Source: Apostichopus japonicus (Eukaryota; Echinodermata; Holothuroidea; Aspidochirotida; Stichopodidae). Taken from it: a stretch of 64,000 bases of DNA. Below the pieces are notes generated by a model. That model was not told the DNA's origin. It saw only the letters and a list, made by a program, of their open reading frames with translations, and ran no database searches. Positions within the stretch are counted from its first letter, which is position 1. The number at the start of each line of letters is the position of its first letter. The translations under genes and the position numbers were made by a program. Of this stretch, positions 21,216 through 58,076 are shown one piece after another. The stretch lies in the NCBI RefSeq assembly GCF_037975245.1, contig NC_092577.1:25417398-25481397 (forward strand), written 5' to 3'.

Positions 21216-21474
21216 GTTGGCAGTTGGCTTTTGGCTGCAGTTGGCTTTTGGCAGTTGGCTGCAGTTGGCTTTCGTGGAGTGCGGACGTGTTTTCGCTCTC
21301 GCTCTTCATCTGTTACAGCTGTTATTGTACTGTGCTGTGCTATACTTCCCGCCAGGCGGGTGTGATAGCTTGTGTTCGTGTGTTTTCCCCAGTTCGTATA
21401 TCGTTTGTTGTTTCACTATCCTGTCTTTTGTTTGTTTTGTGTTACTCCCCTGTGGCCTAGCCACCTTCGGTATC

Positions 21475-22567
21475 ATGGCATCGCGCCGTGATTCTCGGAT
21501 AGTTAAGTTGTCGTTCACCGGTGAACAAGCTGTTCCACCGGTGCAAGTTTTTAGTATTTTGAAGAGCAAGGGGTGTTGTTGTGCCTGGAGAGGTTGATGC
21601 TTTGCAAGCTCTCCAGGGTCGTAATACGTACGATTTACGTTTTACCAGTGACGTGGCCCGTCAGAAAGGTGTCACGTTGCTGCGTAACGTCGAGGGGATG
21701 ACAGTTACTCCATACGAGCGATCCGTATGGGTAACTATCATCCACGTAGGACTAGAGGTGCGGCAGGAACTTGTCGTAACGGTTTTGGGTCGGTTCGGGG
21801 CTGTCAAGGCTGCCAAAATGTGCTCCTATGCACAAGCCCCTGGGGTGTTGAACGGGCACCGACAGGTTCGGATCGACCTGAAACAGGACATTCCCTCCTT
21901 CCTGTTTATAGCAGGGCATAAAGCCCACGTGCAGTATCCCGGTCAGCCCCGTACCTGCTTCAGGTGTGGGGAGACCGGGCACGAAGCCAAGGGCTGCCCA
22001 AACAAGAAATGTGGGCGCTGCCTTCGTCTTGGGCATGATAGCACCGCTTGCCCAAACGAGGTTGTGTGCTCACTATGTGGGAAGGAGGGACATGTCTTTC
22101 GAGCTTGTCCCTCCCCTTATGTCTCTAGGACTAAGAGTGGGGGTAAGTCAAGTTCCGACGCACCTACTACTTCACGAGAGGAGGGGGAATCTGGTGGGAT
22201 TTTACCCTCCCCTGCACCTGGTTCACCCTCCCCCGTCGTTGCAGACCCAAACCCCGTGCCCGCACCGAGAAAGTCTCCACCAGCTTCCCCCATCAACTCG
22301 TCCAGTTCCGTCCCCAGTCCGCCGCCGGTATCGCCAGATCCGGAGGCTTTGTCTGACGGAGAATCGGTGGTCATCGATTCTCCGGAGGTTCTGTCTGACA
22401 GCGACTCCGGTGAATCGGTGATCAGCGAGCCGAAACGTGCCACTGGGACGAGCTGGTACGACGAAATGGGGGAACCCTCTCTTAAAAGGTCGGCTTCAAG
22501 TGACGACTCGGACGACGATATGTCGTCTAGGGCGCGCTTAAAGCTTACGGAATCGTCGTCTTCGTAG
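21475..22567 (+). pseudogene. ORF1 of A, zinc-knuckle protein, one-base insertion
   Basis: Starts MASRRDSRIV. An extra G in the run at about 21570 (GGGGTGTTG, where B has GGGTGTTG) breaks the frame after ~32 residues. The remainder is open to 22567, with three CCHC knuckles, a Pro/Ser linker and the SDDSDDDMSS acidic tail. Its C-terminal region is shorter than in B by one repeated LSDGDSGDSVV-type unit. Confidence 0.88.
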
Positions 22568-22587
22568 TTTTGCCCCACTGCCCTCTC

Positions 22588-25536
22588 ATGGCCCATACAC
22601 TTTCAGTTGCCACTTTGAACGTGAATGGCATGAGGGATCATCGCAAGCGCAGTCGCATTTTCCAATATTGTAAATCAATGGAGGTCGACTGCGTTTGCCT
22701 GCAAGAAACACATATTTTGGAAGAAGATGTCCCTCTATGGGCTTATGAGTGGGGTGGTGAGCTGCATGCTTCGTTTGGTTCGTCTTCATCCTGTGGCACT
22801 GTCATCCTTCTGTCAGCTCGTCAGGCGGGTTGTGCCACTAGGGTGGAGACGGATCACGAGGGCCGATTGGTTTGCATTCTATTCAAGTATCCACAGGGTA
22901 ACATCGCCATTTGCAATGTGTATGCTCCCAATCGGCCTTCTGCTAGACGAGATTTTTTTAACACGCTGCCTTCCTTTGTTCCTGGTAGTGCGCCGCGTGT
23001 CATGGTCGGAGACTTTAACTGTGTCCCAGACTCGGGTCTTGACAGACTCGGAACTTCTGTGTCTGCAAGTCCCGACGCTGGGATCACAGAATTGGACAGA
23101 TTCACTTCGGCACACCTTTTAGCCGATGTCTGGAGGCATATGCACCCGTGTAGTACAGTGTATACGTGGGTGAGGCCTAACGGAGAAGATGCCTCCAGGA
23201 TAGATCGAGTGTATGCGCCCGTAAGTTTTACATTTTCGGGTTGCGAGACGCTCAGCTGTCCGCTCTCTGACCATGACACTGTAGTAGCACGTTTTGTTTT
23301 GCCTTCCATTTTCCCCATCGGGCGGGGCCTATGGAAGCTTCACTGTCGGATTCTTGGCGAGGCAGAGTTCCGCCAGGGTTTCGAGACCAGGTACAAAGGA
23401 TGGCAAACATTGAAGCCGGCCTTTGCTTCTACATGCCAATGGTGGGATGAGGTCAAGTTGCGCATCAAACGCTACGCAATTCAGTATTGCGTGACCCGCG
23501 CACGGCGTCGAAGAGAAAAATTCTCGAAGCTGTGCGCGGAGGTGAAGTTTGGCGACCCTTTGGCTGCCATCGCTTTGCAGACTTATCTCGATGAAAAGTA
23601 CCACGGTGCCCGCGTCAGGGCCCGTGTCGAAGCGGTGGAAGCCGAGGAGCGCCCTTCACTGAGGTTTTACCAGTCCGTTAGCTCATCGGCAGGTGACAGA
23701 CGCGTCCCGTCTGTACGCGCTACTGATGGGACCGTGGTTAGTGACCCTCACGGCATTGTCCGCGTATATAAAGAGTATTATTCGAGTTTGTTTACGCGTG
23801 GCAATGTCGACTTGTCGGCACAGGCTGATTTATTGAGGGGAATCTCAAAAACCGTTCCCCACGATGTCAATGATATTTTGGGGGGCGAAATAACCACTGT
23901 TGAGCTTTGGAAGGCGCTTTCGAAGATGAAGAATGGCAAGTCCCCGGGTTCGGACGGGCTTCCGAGGGAATTCTACCGAACCTTCTGGGCAATAATAGGA
24001 CCCGACATCAGAGCCGTCTTCGAGGACGCCTTCCAAAACGGACTGTTAAACCAAAGTCAACGTCTGGGCATGATTACTTTGCTGCCCAAGTCTGGGGACC
24101 CCTTGGATCCCCGTAACAAGCGTCCGATCACCTTGTTAAATGTGGACTACAACTTGCTGGCTAAGGCTTTGTGCAACCGCCTTGCACTGGCTATGCCGCA
24201 TCTTGTGGGTGATCTCCAGACTTGTGCAGTGAAGGGTCATTGCATCCAGCAGAACTTGTGGTTGATGCGCGACTTGACCGACTTTGTTATTGAGCGTGAT
24301 CTGCCATGTGCATTGGTGTCTCTGGACCAGCAGAAGGCCTTTGACATGGTGGATCGCGGTTTTTTGATGAATGTATTGGAGACGTTTCAGTTGCACCCGG
24401 TTTTTCGTAAATGGATTTCTGTTTTGTATCAGGAAAGTTTCAGTTCTGTTATCGTAAATGGGTTTTGTTCGGAGGTTTTTAGCGTAGAGAGGGGGGTGCG
24501 CCAGGGGTGCCCTCTGTCTCCATTACTTTATGTTTTGTTTAGCGAGTCCCTCTCTCGTCTTTTGGAAAGGGACTCCAGACTTGTTCCATTCGTTGTGCCA
24601 GGGGGTGCCAAAGTGAAATGCGCTCAATATGCAGATGACGTGACATGTGTTGTTTCGAGTCTGGGCTCCTTTCGCGCACTCTCGCAGGATTTATCTGTTT
24701 TTGAGAGAGCTACCGGGGCGAAGTTGAATCCAGAAAAGACAAAGGGCCTTCGTCTTGGTAGCTGGAGATACAGAGACTTACCATTCGGTGCGTCGTGGTC
24801 GGATCAGAATATCCAAATTAATGGTATATGGTTCGGCTACGATGCACCTTGTGATGTCACCTGGAGCGAGAGGGCTGAGGTATTTGAGAGCAGACTCGAA
24901 ACCTTTGGCACCCGCTGGCTTTCGATCTTGGTGAAAGTCACCGTTATTAATCGTTTCGTTTCGCCCATCTTGTGGTACCCGGGCGCGGTGTACCCAATTC
25001 CGCGTCGCGTCCTGGTGCGGTTGGAGAAGGCGATTTTTTCATTCATATGGTCTGGTGGTACAGAGCTTGTCAAGAGGGCGATATTGTACCAAAAACTGGA
25101 GAAGGGGGGACTAGGGGTGGTTCATCTGGGAAGTAAGTTAATTGTTTGTTATTTAAGCAATTGTTTGTAGCGGTAACTGACCCAGGGTTGCCTTGTTCAT
25201 ATTTTGTACGTTTTTGGGGCGGGTTGCACTTGCGTCGATGGGTTCCGGCGCTGTTTAGCAACAGAGAACCGCATAGTAGCACACCAAGCAGAGTGGTGCG
25301 TGTCATTTGCTCCGCTCTTATTGAGTTACCCCCTGTTGACCTGTCACGGCCGGCCCTCGTTCTCAGTTCCTTGCGGGATAGGGCCTTGAATGCAATTTTT
25401 GTACAGGGACGTCATCCTGTCGAAGTATGGCGTTCGGTGCATTCAAGACTGAATGGTTGCAGGCTCCGTGATCTTGCATGGAGAATTGCACACGGTGCCT
25501 TGGTGACCAATCTGAAAAGGTATCACTGGCCATTGG
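22588..25536 (+). pseudogene. ORF2 of A (endonuclease-reverse transcriptase), 5' part
   Basis: ATG at 22588 (MAHTLSVATLNVNGM), 21 bases after the ORF1 stop. The APE-type endonuclease carries LQETH, GDFNC and LSDHD, followed by the RT domain with GVRQGCPLSP and YADD. A base missing near 25140 shifts the frame just after the RT core. The frame then runs on from about 25146 until B interrupts it at YHWP. Confidence 0.88.
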
Positions 25537-25755
25537 AGTTGGCAGTTGGCATTCGTGGAGTGCGGACGTGTTTTCGCTCTCGCTCTTCATCTGTTACAGC
25601 TGTTTTTGTACTGTGCTGTGCTATACTTCCCGCCAGGCGGGTGTGATAGCTTGTGTTCGTGTGTTTTCCTCAGTTCGTATATCGTTTGTTGTTTCACTAT
25701 CCGGTCTTTTGTTTGTTTTGTGTTACTCCCCTGTGGCCTAGCCACCTTCGGTATC

Positions 25756-26898
25756 ATGGCATCGCGCCGTGATTCTCGGATAGTTAAGTTGTCGTTCACC
25801 GGTGAACAAGCTGTTCCACCGGTGCAAGTTTTTAGTATTTTGAAGAGCAAGGGTGTTGTTGTGCCTGGAGAGGTTGATGCTTTGCAAGCTCTCCAGGGTC
25901 GTAATACGTACGATTTACGTTTTACCAGTGACGTGGCCCGTCAGAAAGGGGTCACGTTGCTGAGTAACGTCGAGGGGATGACAGTTACTCCATACGAGCG
26001 ATCCGTATGGGTAACTATCATCCACGTAGGACTAGAGGTGCGGCAGGAACTTGTCGTAACGGTTTTGGGTCGGTTCGGGGCTGTCAAGGCTGCCAAAATG
26101 TGCTCCTATGCACAAGCCCCTGGGGTGTTGAACGGGCACCGACAGGTTCGGATCGACCTGAAACAGGACATTCCCTCCTTCCTGTTTATAGCAGGGCATA
26201 AAGCCCACGTGCGGTATCCCGGTCAGCCCCGTACCTGCTTCAGGTGTGGGGAGACCGGGCACGAAGCCAAGGGTTGCCCAAACAAGAAATGTGGGCGCTG
26301 CCTTCGTCTTGGACATGATAGCACCGCTTGCCCAAACGAGGTTGTGTGTTCACTATGTGGGAAGGAGGGACATGTCTTTCGAGCTTGTCCCTCCTCTTAT
26401 GTCTCTAGGACTAAGAGTGGGGGTAAGTCAAGTTCTGACGCACCTACTACTTCACGAGAGGAGGGGGAATCTGGTGGGATTTTACCCTCCCCTGCACCTG
26501 GTTCACCCTCCCCCGTCGTTGCAGACCCCAACCCCGTGCCCGCACCGAGAAAGTCTCCACCAGCTTCCCCCATCAACTCGTCCAGTTCCGTCCCCAGTCC
26601 GCCGCCGGTATCGCCAGATCCGGAGGCTTTGTCTGACGGAGAATCGGTGGTCATCGATTCTCCGGAGGTTCTGTCCGACGGCGACTCCGGGGACTCGGTG
26701 GTCATCGGGTCTCCGGAGGCTCTGTCTGACAGCGACTCCGGGGGCTCGGTGATCGTCGAGCCAAAACGTGCCACTGGGACGAGCTGGTACGACGAGATGG
26801 GGGAACCCTCTCTAAAAAGGTCGGCCTCAAGTGACGACTCGGACGACGATATGTCGTCTAGAGCGCGCTTGAAGCTTACAGAATCGTCGTCGGCGTAG
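25756..26898 (+). CDS. Tx1-like ORF1 protein, zinc-knuckle RNA-binding (element B)
   Basis: 380 residues from MASRRDSRIV. The ATG at 25756 is preferred over an in-frame upstream ATG (25546) because F, A and C all start here. The ORF1 protein would bind element RNA and form the RNP. Residues 1-150 are the conserved N-terminal domain. Residues ~161-212 hold three CCHC knuckles (CFRCGETGHEAKGC, CGRCLRLGHDSTAC, CSLCGKEGHVFRAC). A Ser/Pro linker with PSPPPVSPDP and three LSDxxSxxSVV-type repeats follows, then the acidic tail. It ends 20 bases before ORF2, which is in another frame, so ORF2 translation probably depends on reinitiation or a similar mechanism. Confidence 0.92.
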   Translation: MASRRDSRIVKLSFTGEQAVPPVQVFSILKSKGVVVPGEVDALQALQGRNTYDLRFTSDVARQKGVTLLSNVEGMTVTPYERSVWVTIIHVGLEVRQELVVTVLGRFGAVKAAKMCSYAQAPGVLNGHRQVRIDLKQDIPSFLFIAGHKAHVRYPGQPRTCFRCGETGHEAKGCPNKKCGRCLRLGHDSTACPNEVVCSLCGKEGHVFRACPSSYVSRTKSGGKSSSDAPTTSREEGESGGILPSPAPGSPSPVVADPNPVPAPRKSPPASPINSSSSVPSPPPVSPDPEALSDGESVVIDSPEVLSDGDSGDSVVIGSPEALSDSDSGGSVIVEPKRATGTSWYDEMGEPSLKRSASSDDSDDDMSSRARLKLTESSSA

Positions 26899-26918
26899 TT
26901 TTGCCCCATTGCCCTCTC

Positions 26919-29900
26919 ATGGCCCATACATTTTCAGTTGCCACTTTGAACGTGAATGGCATGAGGGATCATCGCAAGCGCAGCCGCATTTTCCAATATT
27001 GTATTTCAATGGAGGTCGACTGCGTTTGCCTGCAAGAAACACATATTTTGGAAGAAGATGTCCCTCTATGGGCTTATGAGTGGGGTGGTGGGCTGCATGC
27101 TTCGTTTGGTTCGTCTTCATCCTGTGGCACTGTCATCCTTCTGTCACCTCGTCAGGCGGGTTGTGCCACTAGGGTGGAGACGGATCACGAGGGCCGATTG
27201 GTTTGCATTCTTTTCAAGTATCCACAGGGTAACATCTCCCTCTGCAATGTGTATGCTCCCAATCGGCCTTCTGCTAGACGAGATTTTTTTAACACGCTGC
27301 CTTCCTTTGTTCCTGGTAGTGCACCATGTGTCATGGTCGGAGACTTTAACTGTGTCCCAGACTCGGGTCTTGACAGACTCGGGGCTTCTGTGTCTGCTAG
27401 TCCTGACGCTGGGATCACAGAATTGGAAAGATTCACTTCGGCACACCTTTTAGCCGATGTCTGGAGGCATATGCACCCGTGTAGTACGGTGTATACGTGG
27501 GTGAGGCCTAACGGAGAAGATGCCTCCAGGATAGATCGAGTGTATGCGCCCGTAAGTTTTACATTTTCGGGTTGCGAGACGCTCAGCTGTCCGCTCTCTG
27601 ACCATGACACTGTGGTAGCACGTTTTGTTTTGCCTCCCATTTTCCCCATCGGGCGGGGCCTATGGAAGCTGAACTGTCGGATTCTTGGCGAGGCAGAGTT
27701 CCGCCAGGGTTTCGAGACCAGGTACAAAGGATGGCAAACATTGAAGCCGGCCTTTGCTTCTACATCCCAATGGTGGGATGATGTCAAGTTGCGCATCAAA
27801 CGCTACGCAATTCAGTATTGCGTGACCCGCGCACGGCGTCGAAGAGAAAAATTCTCGAAGCTGTGCGCGGAGGTGAAGTTTGGCGACCCTTCGGCTGTCA
27901 TCGCTTTGCAGACTTATCTCGATGAAAAGTACCACGGTGCCCGCGTCAGGGCCCGTGTCGAAGCGGTGGAAGCCGAGGAGCGCCCTTCACTGAGGTTTTA
28001 CCAGTCCGTTAGCTCATCGGCAGGTGACAGACGCGTCCCGTCTGTGCGCGCTACTGATGGGACCGTGGTTAGTGACCCTCACGGCATTGTCCGCGTATAT
28101 AAAGAGTATTATTCGAGTTTGTTTACGCGTGGCAATGTCGACTTGTCGGCACAGGCTGATTTATTGAGGGGAATCTCAAAAACCGTTCCCCACGATGTCA
28201 ATGATATTTTGGGGGGCGGAATAACCACTGTTGAGCTTTGGAAGGCGCTTTCGAAGATGAAGAATGGCAAGTCCCCGGGTTCGGACGGGCTTCCGAGGGA
28301 GTTCTACCGAACCTTCTGGGCAATAATAGGACCCGACATCAGAGCCGTCTTCGAGGACGCCTTCCAAAACGGACTGTTAAACCAAAGTCAACGTATGGGC
28401 ATGATTACTTTGCTGCCCAAGTCTGGGGACTCCTTGGATCCCCGTAACAAGCGTCCGATCACCTTGTTAAATGTGGACTACAAGTTGCTGGCTAAGGCTT
28501 TGTGCAACCGCCTTGCACTGGCTATGCCGCATCTTGTGGGTGATCTCCAGACTTGTGCAGTGAAGGGTCATTGCATCCAGCAGAACTTGTGGTTGATGCG
28601 CGACTTGACCGACTTTGTTATTGAGCGTGATCTGCCATGTGCATTGGTGTCTCTGGACCAGCAGAAGGCCTTTGACATGGTGGATCGCGGTTTTTTAATG
28701 AACGTATTGGAGACGTTTCAGTTGCACCCAAATTTTCGTAAATGGATTTCTGTTTTGTATGAAGAAACTTTCAGTTCTGTTATCGTAAATGGGTTTTGTT
28801 CGGAGGTTTTTAACGTAGAGAGGGGGGTGCGCCAGGGGTGCCCTCTGTCTCCATTACTTTATGTTTTGTTTAGCGAGTCCCTCTCTCGTCTTTTGGAAAG
28901 GGACTCCAGACTTGTTCCATTCGTTGTGCCAGGGGGTGCCAAAGTGAAATGCGCTCAATATGCAGATGACGTGACATGTGTTGTTTCGAGTCTGGGCTCC
29001 TTTCGCGCACTCTCGCAGGATTTATCTATTTTTGAGAGAGCTACCGGGGCGAAGTTGAATCCAGAAAAGACAAAGGGCCTTCGTCTTGGTAGCTGGAGAT
29101 ACAGAGACTTACCATTCGGTGCGTCGTGGTCGGATCAGAATATCAAAATTAATGGTATATGGTTCGGCTACGATGCACCTGGTGATGTCACCTGGAGCGA
29201 GAGGGCTGAGGTTTTTGAGAGCAGGCTCGAAACCTTTGGCACCCGCTGGCTTTCGATCCTAGGGAAAGTCACCGTAGTTAATCGTTTTGTTTCGCCCATC
29301 TTGTGGTACCCGGGCGCGGTGTATCCAATTCCGCGTCGCGTCCTGGTGCGGTTGGAGAGAGCGATGTTTTCATTTATTTGGTCGGGTGGTACAGAGCTTG
29401 TCAAAAGGGCGGTAATGTACCAAAAACTGGAGAAGGGTGGGTTAGGGGTGGTTCATCTGGGAAGTAAGTTAACTTGCTTGTTATTTAAGCAGTTGTTTGT
29501 AGCGGTAACTGACCCAGGGTTGCCTTGTTCATATTTTGTACGTTTTTGGGGCGGTTTGCACCTGCGTCGATGGGTCCCGGCGCTGTTTAGCAACAGAGAA
29601 CCGCATAGTAGTACTCCAAACAGGGCGGTGCGTGTCATTTGCTCCGCTCTGATTGAGTTGCCCCCTGTTGACCTGTCACAGCCGGCCCTCGTTCACAGTT
29701 CGTTGCGGGATAGGGCCTTGAATGCAATTTTTGTACAGGGACGTCATCCTGTCGAAGTATGGCGTTCGGTGCATTCAAGGCTGAATGGTTGCAGGCTCCG
29801 TGACCTTGCATGGAGAATTGCACACGGTGCCTTGGTGACCAATCTGAAAAGGTATCACTGGCGATTGGGTGATGGACTGTGCCCGAGGACCGGCTGTGAC

Positions 29901-30311
29901 AGCTTAGAGAGTACTGCCCATGTTTTTTGGCATTGCCCCTTTGTTTTGAACTTGTGGGAGTGGTTTCAGTCCTGGACCGACCGTTTAACGGGAGACCGTT
30001 CCTGGTCGGTAGGACAGGGTTTTGTTTTGTATGGATTAGATCCTCCAGTTTGTTCTGTTGCTGTGTTGCAGCGTATTATTTATGTTTGTTCTGTTGTAAA
30101 AAAACTTATTTGGAGGAATAGATGTGATGTTGTTTTTAGGGGGAAATTTGCCAGTTGGCAGGCAGTCCTGGAGGCGGTGAAGTCTGACATTCGCCTTCAG
30201 GTTGAAGGCGATTTTCACCGTCTATCTAGGGCTGCCTTTTTTGGACGGTGGTGTGCTGGGGAAGGGTGTTTTGTTTCGCTGCGTGCTGGTCGTCCTTTTG
30301 TAGTTTTTTAA
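26919..30311 (+). CDS. Tx1-like ORF2: APE endonuclease and reverse transcriptase (element B)
   Basis: 1130 residues from MAHTFSVATLNVNGM. The first ATG is at 26919; the open frame extends upstream only by TTG. This is the target-primed reverse transcription enzyme. APE-type endonuclease: NVNGM at ~11-15, QETH 39-42, GDFN 141-144, RIDRVY 204-209, SDHD 227-230. RT: KSPGSDGLPREFY, NKRPITLLN, DQQKAFD, GVRQGCPLSP and catalytic YADD at 681-684. C-terminal CCHC-type motif from about residue 988 (CPRTGC...HVFWHC). No key residue is missing by eye. The wording fits the Tx1 branch of the L1 group. Target specificity is unknown; the three insertion sites in this window share no obvious motif. Confidence 0.92.
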   Translation: MAHTFSVATLNVNGMRDHRKRSRIFQYCISMEVDCVCLQETHILEEDVPLWAYEWGGGLHASFGSSSSCGTVILLSPRQAGCATRVETDHEGRLVCILFKYPQGNISLCNVYAPNRPSARRDFFNTLPSFVPGSAPCVMVGDFNCVPDSGLDRLGASVSASPDAGITELERFTSAHLLADVWRHMHPCSTVYTWVRPNGEDASRIDRVYAPVSFTFSGCETLSCPLSDHDTVVARFVLPPIFPIGRGLWKLNCRILGEAEFRQGFETRYKGWQTLKPAFASTSQWWDDVKLRIKRYAIQYCVTRARRRREKFSKLCAEVKFGDPSAVIALQTYLDEKYHGARVRARVEAVEAEERPSLRFYQSVSSSAGDRRVPSVRATDGTVVSDPHGIVRVYKEYYSSLFTRGNVDLSAQADLLRGISKTVPHDVNDILGGGITTVELWKALSKMKNGKSPGSDGLPREFYRTFWAIIGPDIRAVFEDAFQNGLLNQSQRMGMITLLPKSGDSLDPRNKRPITLLNVDYKLLAKALCNRLALAMPHLVGDLQTCAVKGHCIQQNLWLMRDLTDFVIERDLPCALVSLDQQKAFDMVDRGFLMNVLETFQLHPNFRKWISVLYEETFSSVIVNGFCSEVFNVERGVRQGCPLSPLLYVLFSESLSRLLERDSRLVPFVVPGGAKVKCAQYADDVTCVVSSLGSFRALSQDLSIFERATGAKLNPEKTKGLRLGSWRYRDLPFGASWSDQNIKINGIWFGYDAPGDVTWSERAEVFESRLETFGTRWLSILGKVTVVNRFVSPILWYPGAVYPIPRRVLVRLERAMFSFIWSGGTELVKRAVMYQKLEKGGLGVVHLGSKLTCLLFKQLFVAVTDPGLPCSYFVRFWGGLHLRRWVPALFSNREPHSSTPNRAVRVICSALIELPPVDLSQPALVHSSLRDRALNAIFVQGRHPVEVWRSVHSRLNGCRLRDLAWRIAHGALVTNLKRYHWRLGDGLCPRTGCDSLESTAHVFWHCPFVLNLWEWFQSWTDRLTGDRSWSVGQGFVLYGLDPPVCSVAVLQRIIYVCSVVKKLIWRNRCDVVFRGKFASWQAVLEAVKSDIRLQVEGDFHRLSRAAFFGRWCAGEGCFVSLRAGRPFVVF

Positions 30312-30485
30312 TATTTCAGTGGGGGGTTGGGCGTTTTGTCTCTGCAGGTCGGTGAGCGTATGTACTTTTTTTTGGCTCGCTTGACCTGAGGTTCGTTTGT
30401 AAGAATGGGATGGTTTGGTAGTGCCGTTTGGCCGTGACGTTTTGTATCCCGTATGACGGGTCACGTAAAAAGCACTGGCCATTGG

Positions 30486-30928
30486 GTGATGGACTGTGCC
30501 CGAGGACCGGCTGTGACAGCTTAGAGAGTACTGCCCATGTTTTTTGGCATTGCCCCTTTCTTTTGAACTTGTGGGAGTGGTTTCAGTCCTGGACCGACCG
30601 TTTAACGGGAGACCGTTCCTGGTCGGTAGGACAGGGTTTTGTTTTATATGGATTAGATCCTCCAGTTTGTTCCGTTGCTGTGTCGCAGCGTATTATTTAT
30701 GTTTGTTCTGTTGTAAAAAAACTTATTTGGAGGAATAGATGTGATGTTGTTTTTAGGGGCAAATTTGCCAGTTGGCAGGCAGTCCTGGAGGCGGTGAAGT
30801 CTGACATTCGCCTTCAGGTCGAAGGCGATTTTCGCCGTTTATCTAGGGCTGCCTTTTTTGGACGGTGGTGTGCTGGGGAAGGGCGTTTTGTTTCGCTGCG
30901 TGCTGGTCGTCCTTTTGTAGTTTTTTAA
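30486..30928 (+). pseudogene. ORF2 of A, 3' part with C-terminal CCHC motif
   Basis: Continues A beyond B with GDGLCPRTGCD...HVFWHC (C-terminal Cys/His motif of L1-like ORF2) and ends at the same point as B ORF2 (GRPFVVF). The 3' UTR and the CCCGT-ATG-ACGGG mini-hairpin before the tail follow. Confidence 0.88.
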
Positions 30929-31103
30929 TATTTCAGTGGGGGGTTGGGCGTTTTGTCTCTGCAGGTCGGTGAGCATATGTACTTTTTTTTGGCTCGCTTG
31001 ACCTGAGGTTCGTTTGTAAGAATGGGATGGTTTGGTAGTGCCGTTTGGCCGTGACGTTTTGTATCCCGTATGACGGGTCACGTAAAAAGCACCTGTTCAG
31101 ACA

Positions 31104-57131: not shown

Positions 57132-57436
57132 GTCAGGGATTGGTGTAGCGAACGTACGCCATAAGGCGTCGTTGCTTTGATGAAAATAACTTCAAAATAG
57201 TAGGAAAGTGTTATCGATGCTGGTCAGAAAGTTCATGAGATTAAATTTCAAGTTTACTTTTGAAATGTCTGCAATAACAGCAAATACGTCCAGAGAAAAA
57301 AACTTACAATAGTCGGAGTTAACATAAAAGCACGTCTCGTTTCTAGTGCTCCTATCTAGCGCTCTTATATTAGCATTTAATAGTTGAATTCATTGTTAGG
57401 AACTAGCCATTCATATTTCTCTTGTGTCACAAAAAT

Positions 57437-57626
57437 ACTTTTTAAGAAAAAGTCACCCAGGAAAGAACCTGGGCACGAAAACCAAACTACCAAACGACTG
57501 ATCCGCTCTCAGCCCCAGTCCCCTTGCATCGGGACTGTGACTGTGTGATCATCGTCAGGTGTGCATCACCATTCCCGAAGGGAACAGATACTACACATGA
57601 TCTTAGCCAAAAGGCCGAGAAGCGAT
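57437..57626 (-). mobile_element. Retroposon with U2 snRNA-derived head (SINE-like)
   Basis: The minus strand starts ATCGCTTCTCGGCC and follows U2 snRNA for ~44 nt, including the branch-site recognition word GTAGTA, to ...ATCTGTTC. It then switches to unrelated sequence: GGTGATGCACACCTGACGAT, a CAGTCCC/GGGGACTG stem and a terminal GCCCAGG/CCTGGGT hairpin, ending in a T/A-rich tail. It is flanked by TCACAAAAAT at 57427-57436 and 57626-57635. The canonical U2 Sm site and 3' stem-loops are absent. The duplication shows insertion via RNA. It is comparable to snRNA-headed SINEs (SINEU) of crocodilians, but here the body is unknown. Confidence 0.8.
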
Positions 57627-57976
57627 CACAAAAATGTTGACAGATCAATCCTCAGGCTCAGGCCTATATGATTTAAAAATGCTACTAAACAGTAGAGGAA
57701 AAGCTAGGCCTAGGCATTTTAGCAACACATTTGCTTCAAACTTTGCATATCAATAACCAAATGTGTTTGAATGTCATAAGACTTAAGACTCTCGAGTTAA
57801 CTGCTATCTTTGCCAAGTGATAACCAGTGACAGAGACCTGCCCTGGGTCCAAGTGGAATCCGAAATGAACGCAATTAGTTACTGCAGTTAAAGTAAATCG
57901 CATGCAAATGGGATGATTGCCCAACGTTAGTCTAATGACTATTGTAAATAGCCTAGGCCGAAGTTAGGGAAGTCAG

Positions 57977-58076
57977 TCAACTCGGTACAAAGCCAACTCG
58001 GTACATAACAACTCGGTACAAAACCGAGTTGGTAGGTAAAAGCTGTACCGAGTTGGTCACGACCAACTCGGTACAC
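57977..58076. repeat. Cluster of CAACTCGGTAC motifs in both orientations
   Basis: AACTCGGTAC occurs at least four times on the + strand and as GTACCGAGTT or ACCGAGTT twice in reverse, within 100 bp. It can fold into several alternative hairpins. Confidence 0.75.

What the first reader, a model, noticed from the sequence alone, without database searches (positions are those of the whole stretch)
57437..57626. U2 snRNA-headed retroposon with unknown body
About 44 nt of U2 5' end, with the branch-site word GTAGTA, joins an unrelated ~130-nt structured body, flanked by a 10-bp duplication. The exact U2 transcription start at the 5' border suggests either template switching from U2 during reverse transcription, as in U6/LINE chimeras, or a true SINE family with a Pol II snRNA-type head.
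Basis: partly seen in the sequence, partly recalled or inferred. Interest (0 to 1): 0.8.

Follow-up and report, generated by a model that had tools for sequence, protein, structure and literature searches.

The report
U2-headed SINE living in U2 genes
A short jumping element in what is very probably a sea cucumber genome sits inside U2 splicing-RNA genes, seems to borrow their promoter, and has scattered copies that carry the front end of U2, which explains the odd chimera in this window.

Summary
Window 57437-57626 (minus strand) is a 190-nt insertion that begins exactly at U2 nt 1, carries about 50 nt of U2, continues into a non-U2 body and is flanked by a 10-bp duplication. It is not a one-off chimera: the host genome (very probably Apostichopus japonicus) holds 87 exact copies of the junction and 1,879 body words at up to 3 mismatches. 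The key finding lies outside the window. In the host's tandem U2 array, 27 U2 genes are interrupted at one nucleotide (37/38, the published Keno/Utopia site or one base from it). Six interruptions end in this SINE, 21 in four LINE families (APE-type in the two whose proteins were scanned). The U2 head is therefore best explained as the 5' part of a host U2 gene: a U2-resident SINE would be transcribed from the U2 promoter, and its reverse transcripts land elsewhere at weakly U2-like sites. Dispersed copies identical to a U2-resident copy exist. SINEs with U1/U2 heads are known (SINEU, crocodilians, recalled); a SINE resident in U2 genes beside its probable LINE partners appears to be a new variant. 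Transcription and partnership are inferred.

The parts
57437..57626 (-). Full-length SINE copy, 190 nt, from U2 nt 1 to ...CTTAAAAAGT
   Evidence: 87 exact junction matches and 300 exact body words in the genome; one other place is 100% identical over 190 nt (C14:18055785)
57577..57626 (-). U2-derived head, U2 nt 1-50 (48 of 50 identical to host U2; TT to CC at nt 46-47)
   Evidence: Rfam U2; blastn against host U2 genes, 96% over 50 nt
57589..57590 (-). Copy of the U2 insertion site (nt 37/38) inside the head; in other copies this site is hit by further SINE insertions
   Evidence: Site; SINE-in-SINE-head cases L020 and L091
57437..57576 (-). Non-U2 body, strongly folded, origin unknown
   Evidence: No other Rfam family in the element at E up to 1; fold z -4.0 for the whole element
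57437..57476 (-). 3' end: two predicted hairpins (GCCCAGG/CCTGGGT and ACTTTTT/AAAAAGT), no poly(A) tail; abuts U2 nt 38 in U2-resident copies
   Evidence: Fold; six U2 genes with AAAAAGT|ATCTGTTCTTTTCAGC
57427..57436 (.). Target-site duplication, left copy (TCACAAAAAT)
57626..57635 (.). Target-site duplication, right copy (TCACAAAAAT; first base shared with element nt 1)

Best explanation
The window element is a dispersed, promoter-less copy of a SINE whose source copies live inside U2 snRNA genes. Shown: SINE copies interrupt U2 genes of the host array at nt 37/38; the three full-length ones leave the U2 promoter and U2 head in front of the SINE body, and the rest of the U2 gene follows the SINE. 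Many dispersed copies start exactly at U2 +1 without the U2 promoter, and some are identical to a U2-resident copy. Inferred: the U2 promoter (RNA polymerase II, snRNA type) transcribes U2(1-50)-SINE-U2(38-end). A LINE protein that uses the same U2 site nicks the U2 gene and primes reverse transcription at the SINE 3' end; pairing of the nicked strand with the U2 sequence behind the SINE in the RNA could set the exact 3' junction. Back in a U2 gene, the U2 head of the cDNA can merge with the matching U2 sequence and so regain a promoter. Elsewhere a short ATCT-like match suffices, and the copy is a dead end with a U2 head and an ordinary target duplication.
For: 27 U2 genes interrupted at the same nucleotide, all in the C16 array, 6 ending in the SINE and 21 in four LINE families. 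Two SINE-bearing U2 units are identical to an intact neighbour over 300 nt upstream plus nt 1-37 (337 of 337) and 400 of 400 nt downstream. Truncated SINEs at the site carry a 16-nt duplication of U2 nt 38-53 (L090, L093). LINE A leaves U2 nt 1-50 before it in the 4 copies whose 5' end was read (L089, L160-L162), the same point where U2 ends in the SINE. Starts: 27 of 78 at U2 nt 1, 62 of 78 within nt 1-6; the 27 have no U2 promoter upstream (at most 14 of 30 bases alike). A U2-resident copy is identical to a dispersed copy over 190 nt and to two more over 187 and 184 nt. Dispersed 3' flanks favour U2's ATCT: A 78, T 50, C 40, T 44 of 78, the last three far above control. T4 and T5 runs at nt 15-18, 146-149 and 176-180 speak against Pol III.
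Against: No RNA data. Copies in a tandem array may spread by recombination, so the 27 interruptions are not 27 independent events and direction (U2 to genome) is not proven. G42, T44 and C45 of the target are not favoured at dispersed sites, and the 5' side of those sites does not look like U2. The SINE tail has no significant match to LINEs A or C. LINE A's 3' end is found only in the U2 array (7 of 7) while the SINE is genome-wide, and intact relatives at 37-47% lie outside the array, so another LINE may do the dispersing. The 5' junctions of LINE B and C inside U2 lack duplications and lose nt 26-37 or 31-37, so the insertion outcome at U2 varies. Twelve of the 27 copies with U2 unchanged to nt 50 lie in foldback arms.
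Confidence: 0.72

Rival explanations
1. An independent SINE gained a U2 head by RNA template switching (as I recall was proposed for crocodilian SINEU-1) and is mobilised genome-wide by a LINE without U2 preference; the copies in U2 genes are secondary, because the head resembles U2.
For: SINEU precedent (class seen cited; details recalled). The SINE is dispersed while LINE A is confined to U2. Other intact APE-LINE relatives exist outside U2.
Against: The SINE sits at the exact LINE insertion nucleotide in U2, including truncated copies without a head (L090, L093), which cannot have been placed by head homology. The U2 part ends where LINE A's own U2 flank ends.
Confidence: 0.17
2. A Pol III SINE with an internal promoter in the body; the U2 head is a passenger.
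For: Heads of most SINEs serve as Pol III promoters (PMC7245038, passage).
Against: Starts cluster at U2 +1, not at a fixed distance from a box; no tRNA, 5S or 7SL match in Rfam at E up to 1; T4 and T5 runs inside the element. A and B boxes were judged by eye only.
Confidence: 0.05
3. The SINE-bearing U2 genes arose by one insertion and spread by recombination only; the SINE is no longer mobile through U2.
For: Neighbouring units are identical over long flanks.
Against: U2-resident SINEs differ in start, duplication and sequence (L067, L090-L093), and dispersed copies identical to one exist.
Confidence: 0.06

Closest known systems
SINEU (Kojima 2015, Genome Biol Evol 7:1702, SINEs with U1/U2-derived heads in crocodilians; paper not held; title and class name seen cited in PMC5753468 and PMC7245038; content recalled)
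   Same: U2 5' end as SINE head, non-U2 body, target duplications, many copies; linked to a Tx1-clade LINE (recalled).
   Different: SINEU prefers a Mariner transposon as target (recalled); here copies sit in U2 genes themselves at the LINE target nucleotide, in an echinoderm.
Keno and Utopia, U2-gene-targeting LINEs (PMC4640811, parts 1-3 of 5 read)
   Same: Same insertion point in U2 (published downstream U2 sequence starts at nt 39; here nt 38 or 39, a shared A leaving one base open).
   Different: Those are autonomous LINEs; Utopia has a restriction-like endonuclease, while the two LINEs scanned here have APE, as stated for Keno. The SINE is short and non-coding.
R2-site short internally deleted elements (SIDEs) in 28S genes (recalled, no call)
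   Same: A short passenger in a multicopy RNA gene that uses the site of a specific LINE and is co-transcribed with the host gene.
   Different: R2-type 5' ends are freed from 28S RNA by a ribozyme (recalled); here the host RNA head is kept and travels with the element.

Membership tests
SINE (general) | Short, non-coding, many dispersed copies with common ends | tested here: met
   190 nt; 87 exact junctions, 300 exact and 1,879 near body words; common 3' end in the copies parsed
SINE (general) | Variable target-site duplications | tested here: met
   47 of 78 with 7 bp or more, control about 0.5%
SINE (general) | 3' end shared with a partner LINE | tested here: inconclusive
   No significant match to LINEs A and C; only AAAAGT(A) shared with families A, B and D
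SINEU (snRNA-headed SINE) | Head derived from U1 or U2 snRNA | tested here: met
   U2 nt 1-50; 36 of 42 body-selected copies reach the head
SINEU (snRNA-headed SINE) | Sequence kinship with crocodilian SINEU bodies | not tested
   SINEU sequences not at hand; paper not held
U2-gene-targeting element (Keno/Utopia site) | 3' junction at U2 nt 38/39 | tested here: met
   6 SINE 3' ends followed by ATCTGTTCTTTTCAGC, within one base of the published site
U2-gene-targeting element (Keno/Utopia site) | Strict confinement to U2 genes | tested here: not met
   Hundreds of SINE copies lie elsewhere; LINE A is confined (7 of 7)
Keno / Tx1 clade (for the LINEs in the U2 array) | APE endonuclease plus RT, inserted in U2 | tested here: met
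   Families A and C; junctions. Proteins of B and D were not scanned with Pfam; B- and D-type ORF2 align to A at 51% and 47%
Keno / Tx1 clade (for the LINEs in the U2 array) | Grouping with Keno in an RT tree | not tested
   No Keno sequence at hand; best solved relative of A's ORF2 is LINE-1 ORF2p

The most novel reading that the evidence does not exclude
A two-phase SINE life cycle: the element is bred only inside U2 snRNA genes, whose Pol II promoter makes its RNA. Its U2 head acts as a homology arm that lets a new copy in a U2 gene fuse to a promoter, while LINEs at the same nucleotide supply the enzyme. Copies outside snRNA genes are sterile offspring. SnRNA heads on SINEs would then be a by-product of target choice and could arise whenever a SINE occupies a Keno/Utopia site.
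Probability: 0.45. Interest if true: 0.78.

Novelty: new variant of a known kind. Interest (0 to 1): 0.62.

Why it matters
It offers a concrete origin for the puzzling class of SINEs with snRNA heads: such a SINE may arise because it occupies a snRNA gene used by a site-specific LINE. It would be a SINE driven by a Pol II snRNA promoter, testable in one animal whose genome holds source genes, candidate enzymes and progeny together. It also shows that 27 of the 87 U2 sites found with exact words (27 interrupted, 60 intact) are broken by retroelements, so the array carries a heavy load.

Tried and rejected
Single template-switch chimera: rejected by copy number. SINE tail copied from the LINEs at the U2 site: no significant blastn match to LINEs A and C. 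Body as another known RNA: nothing in Rfam at E up to 1 within the element except U2. Utopia as partner: the two LINEs scanned with Pfam carry APE, not RLE. First parse of head starts had an index error that put every start at nt 34 and gave no duplications; corrected; one search's starts and duplications are not used. The first body-sample parse was ungapped and called 28 of 42 truncated; gapped alignment shows 36 of 42 with the head. The downstream comparison was off by one base (130 of 400) and was corrected (400 of 400). Two independent insertions at one U4 site: undecided, since a 19-nt deletion could turn one form into the other.

What was dropped: 84 of the 87 exact-junction places were parsed (three U4-array copies were not fetched); six rows with repeated 3' flanks were collapsed, leaving 78. 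The 42 body matches come from 40 loci taken in list order (C1 to C6) from the 100 listed of 300 places, leaving out places already fetched and two others that I skipped, so exact-junction copies are under-represented there. Exact-word searches favour young copies throughout. Interrupted and intact U2 genes were counted with exact words, so both are lower bounds.

Papers: PMC4640811, parts 1-3 of 5 of the text; PMC5753468, PMC7245038 and PMC10344927, passages only; PMC4494074 not held. Searches for a SINE inside U2 genes or with a U2 head: open-licence PMC papers only; no listed title or abstract start reports one, but the listings were cut and most subscription papers are not held.

Full report
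Observation. The window carries, on its minus strand at 57437-57626, a 190-nt element that starts with the first base of U2 snRNA, follows U2 to about nt 50 and then runs into a body with no other Rfam match at E up to 1. A 10-bp duplication flanks it. Host U2 genes match it at 96% over nt 1-50 only.

Host. The genome has 671,581,487 bases in 35 contigs. Its mitochondrial contig reads COX1, ND4L, COX2 in the echinoderm code, an order typical of echinoderms (recalled). The published Apostichopus japonicus assembly is 671.60 Mb with 23 chromosomes of 18.21-46.02 Mb and 34 scaffolds (PMC10344927, passages), which fits. I treat the species as very probable, not proven. That paper gives SINEs as 0.02% of the genome.

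It is a SINE family. The 26-nt head/body junction occurs 87 times exactly. A variant junction with U2 unchanged to nt 50 occurs 27 times, but 12 of these are six inverted pairs 2-3.4 kb apart; the four pairs fetched lie in long inverted arms of foldback-like elements. A 29-nt body word occurs 300 times exactly and 1,879 times at up to three mismatches, with no match of the reversed control. In a sample taken by body alone, 36 of 42 matches align into the U2 head (U2 nt 33 or earlier) and six start later; I saw no other head, though the six flanks were not searched for one. Junction types there: 20 with a longer loop (CCCTTTCGAGGGG-like), 14 short, 8 unassigned. In the exact-junction set, of 78 copies with distinct flanks 27 start at U2 nt 1 and 62 within nt 1-6; 47 have duplications of 7 bp or more, 31 do not; re-paired controls reach 7 bp in about 0.5%.

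It lives in U2 genes. Genuine U2 genes form a 645-bp tandem array on C16 (about 31.00-31.17 Mb) plus four genes on C15. A search for U2 from nt 38 onward not preceded by U2 gave 27 places, all in the C16 array, beside 60 exact intact copies (56 there, 4 on C15). The 27 inserts end in the SINE tail (6) or in LINE families A (7), C (7), B (4) and D (3). This is the insertion site of Keno and Utopia, whose downstream U2 sequence starts at nt 39 (PMC4640811, parts 1-3 of 5); the difference of one base is a shared A. In the three full-length cases (two in L067, one in L092) the U2 promoter runs without a break into the SINE's U2 head. The two L067 units are identical to an intact neighbour over 337 of 337 nt before the site and 400 of 400 nt after it. 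Two truncated SINEs at the site (L090, L093) have a 16-nt duplication, nt 38-53; L090's lies between a LINE B and its U2 remnant. In L091 a SINE has inserted at the same nucleotide of an older SINE's head.

Where the head comes from. Insertion at nt 37/38 with a 13-nt duplication leaves U2 nt 1-50 before the insert. This is what stands before LINE A in the four copies whose 5' end I read (L089, L160-L162), and it is where U2 stops in the SINE. LINE B (two read, L158, L159) and LINE C (two read, L088, L163) instead lose U2 nt 26-37 and 31-37. I infer that the founder SINE inserted as LINE A does, was transcribed from the U2 promoter, and that later copies kept U2 nt 1-50. The 27 copies starting at nt 1 have no U2 promoter upstream (at most 14 of 30 bases alike, mean 9.4). 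One U2-resident SINE is identical to a dispersed copy over 190 nt and to two others over 187 and 184 nt. This fits U2 residents as sources but does not prove the direction.

Site choice of dispersed copies. The 3' flank starts with A in 78 of 78 copies; 38 of 42 clean duplications include this A, so it is mostly target DNA. Then T (50 of 78), C (40), T (44) and, after an unselected base, T (40) match U2's ATCTGT, each above nearby controls (P from 7e-11 to 5e-5); U2's G42, T44 and C45 are not favoured, and the 5' side shows no U2 likeness. Annealing of the nicked strand to U2 sequence behind the SINE in the RNA, or endonuclease preference, would both give this.

Partners. LINE families A and C encode a zinc-knuckle ORF1 and an ORF2 with APE endonuclease and reverse transcriptase; the closest solved relative of A's ORF2 is LINE-1 ORF2p. 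Of 40 scored ORF2 matches (4,570 candidates), 11 lie in the U2 array (six at 100%, three at 51%, two at 47%), none with an internal stop; the other 29 lie elsewhere at 37-48%, so other LINEs could disperse the SINE. The 3' end of family A is found seven times, all in the U2 array. The SINE shares only the last few bases with families A, B and D. The partnership is inferred from the shared site.

What is known. SINEs with snRNA heads (SINEU) are an accepted class, seen cited in two held papers; the original paper is not held. U2-targeting LINEs are known. Eight searches of open-licence papers listed no SINE inside U2 genes, which is weak evidence of absence. I call it a new variant of a known kind.

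Limits. No expression data; junctions in a tandem array are not independent; exact-word searches favour young copies and give lower bounds; errors in an assembled repeat array cannot be excluded without reads.

Noticed in passing
L077-L079 (C18:9.489-9.508 Mb): The SINE also interrupts U4 snRNA genes in a tandem array (8 of the 87 exact-junction places), at one nucleotide (GGTTT|ATCCGAG) that resembles the U2 site; one or two insertion events spread with the array.
   Followed up: partly
L152-L155 (C3, C7, C2, C19): Palindromic foldback-like elements with arms of 340-1,720 bp at 99.6-100% identity carry one SINE copy in each arm; six such inverted pairs were seen by word search.
   Followed up: partly
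window 21242-31100: Tandem pair of APE-type LINE copies (96% identical over 4.3 kb); the second copy's ORF2 (window 26907-30302) is 38% identical to LINE A's; 3' end ...GTAAAAAGCA beside CCTGTTCAG, perhaps another site-preferring LINE; many of its relatives lie on C17.
   Followed up: partly
C17:12.0-25.5 Mb: C17 holds 20 of the 87 exact-junction copies although it is 5.5% of the genome (binomial P 5e-8), and many LINE relatives.
   Followed up: no
L087 (C2:21947400-21949200): Head-to-tail cluster of nine SINE pieces within 1.3 kb, possibly from repeated insertion at the U2-like site in the head.
   Followed up: no
C29:14745-31219: COX1-like fragments split over several kb, probably mitochondrial DNA moved to or misassembled in a small contig.
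   Followed up: no
window 57988-58076: Clustered direct and inverted copies of CCAACTCGGTAC forming a strong palindrome; only sub-threshold Rfam hits.
   Followed up: no
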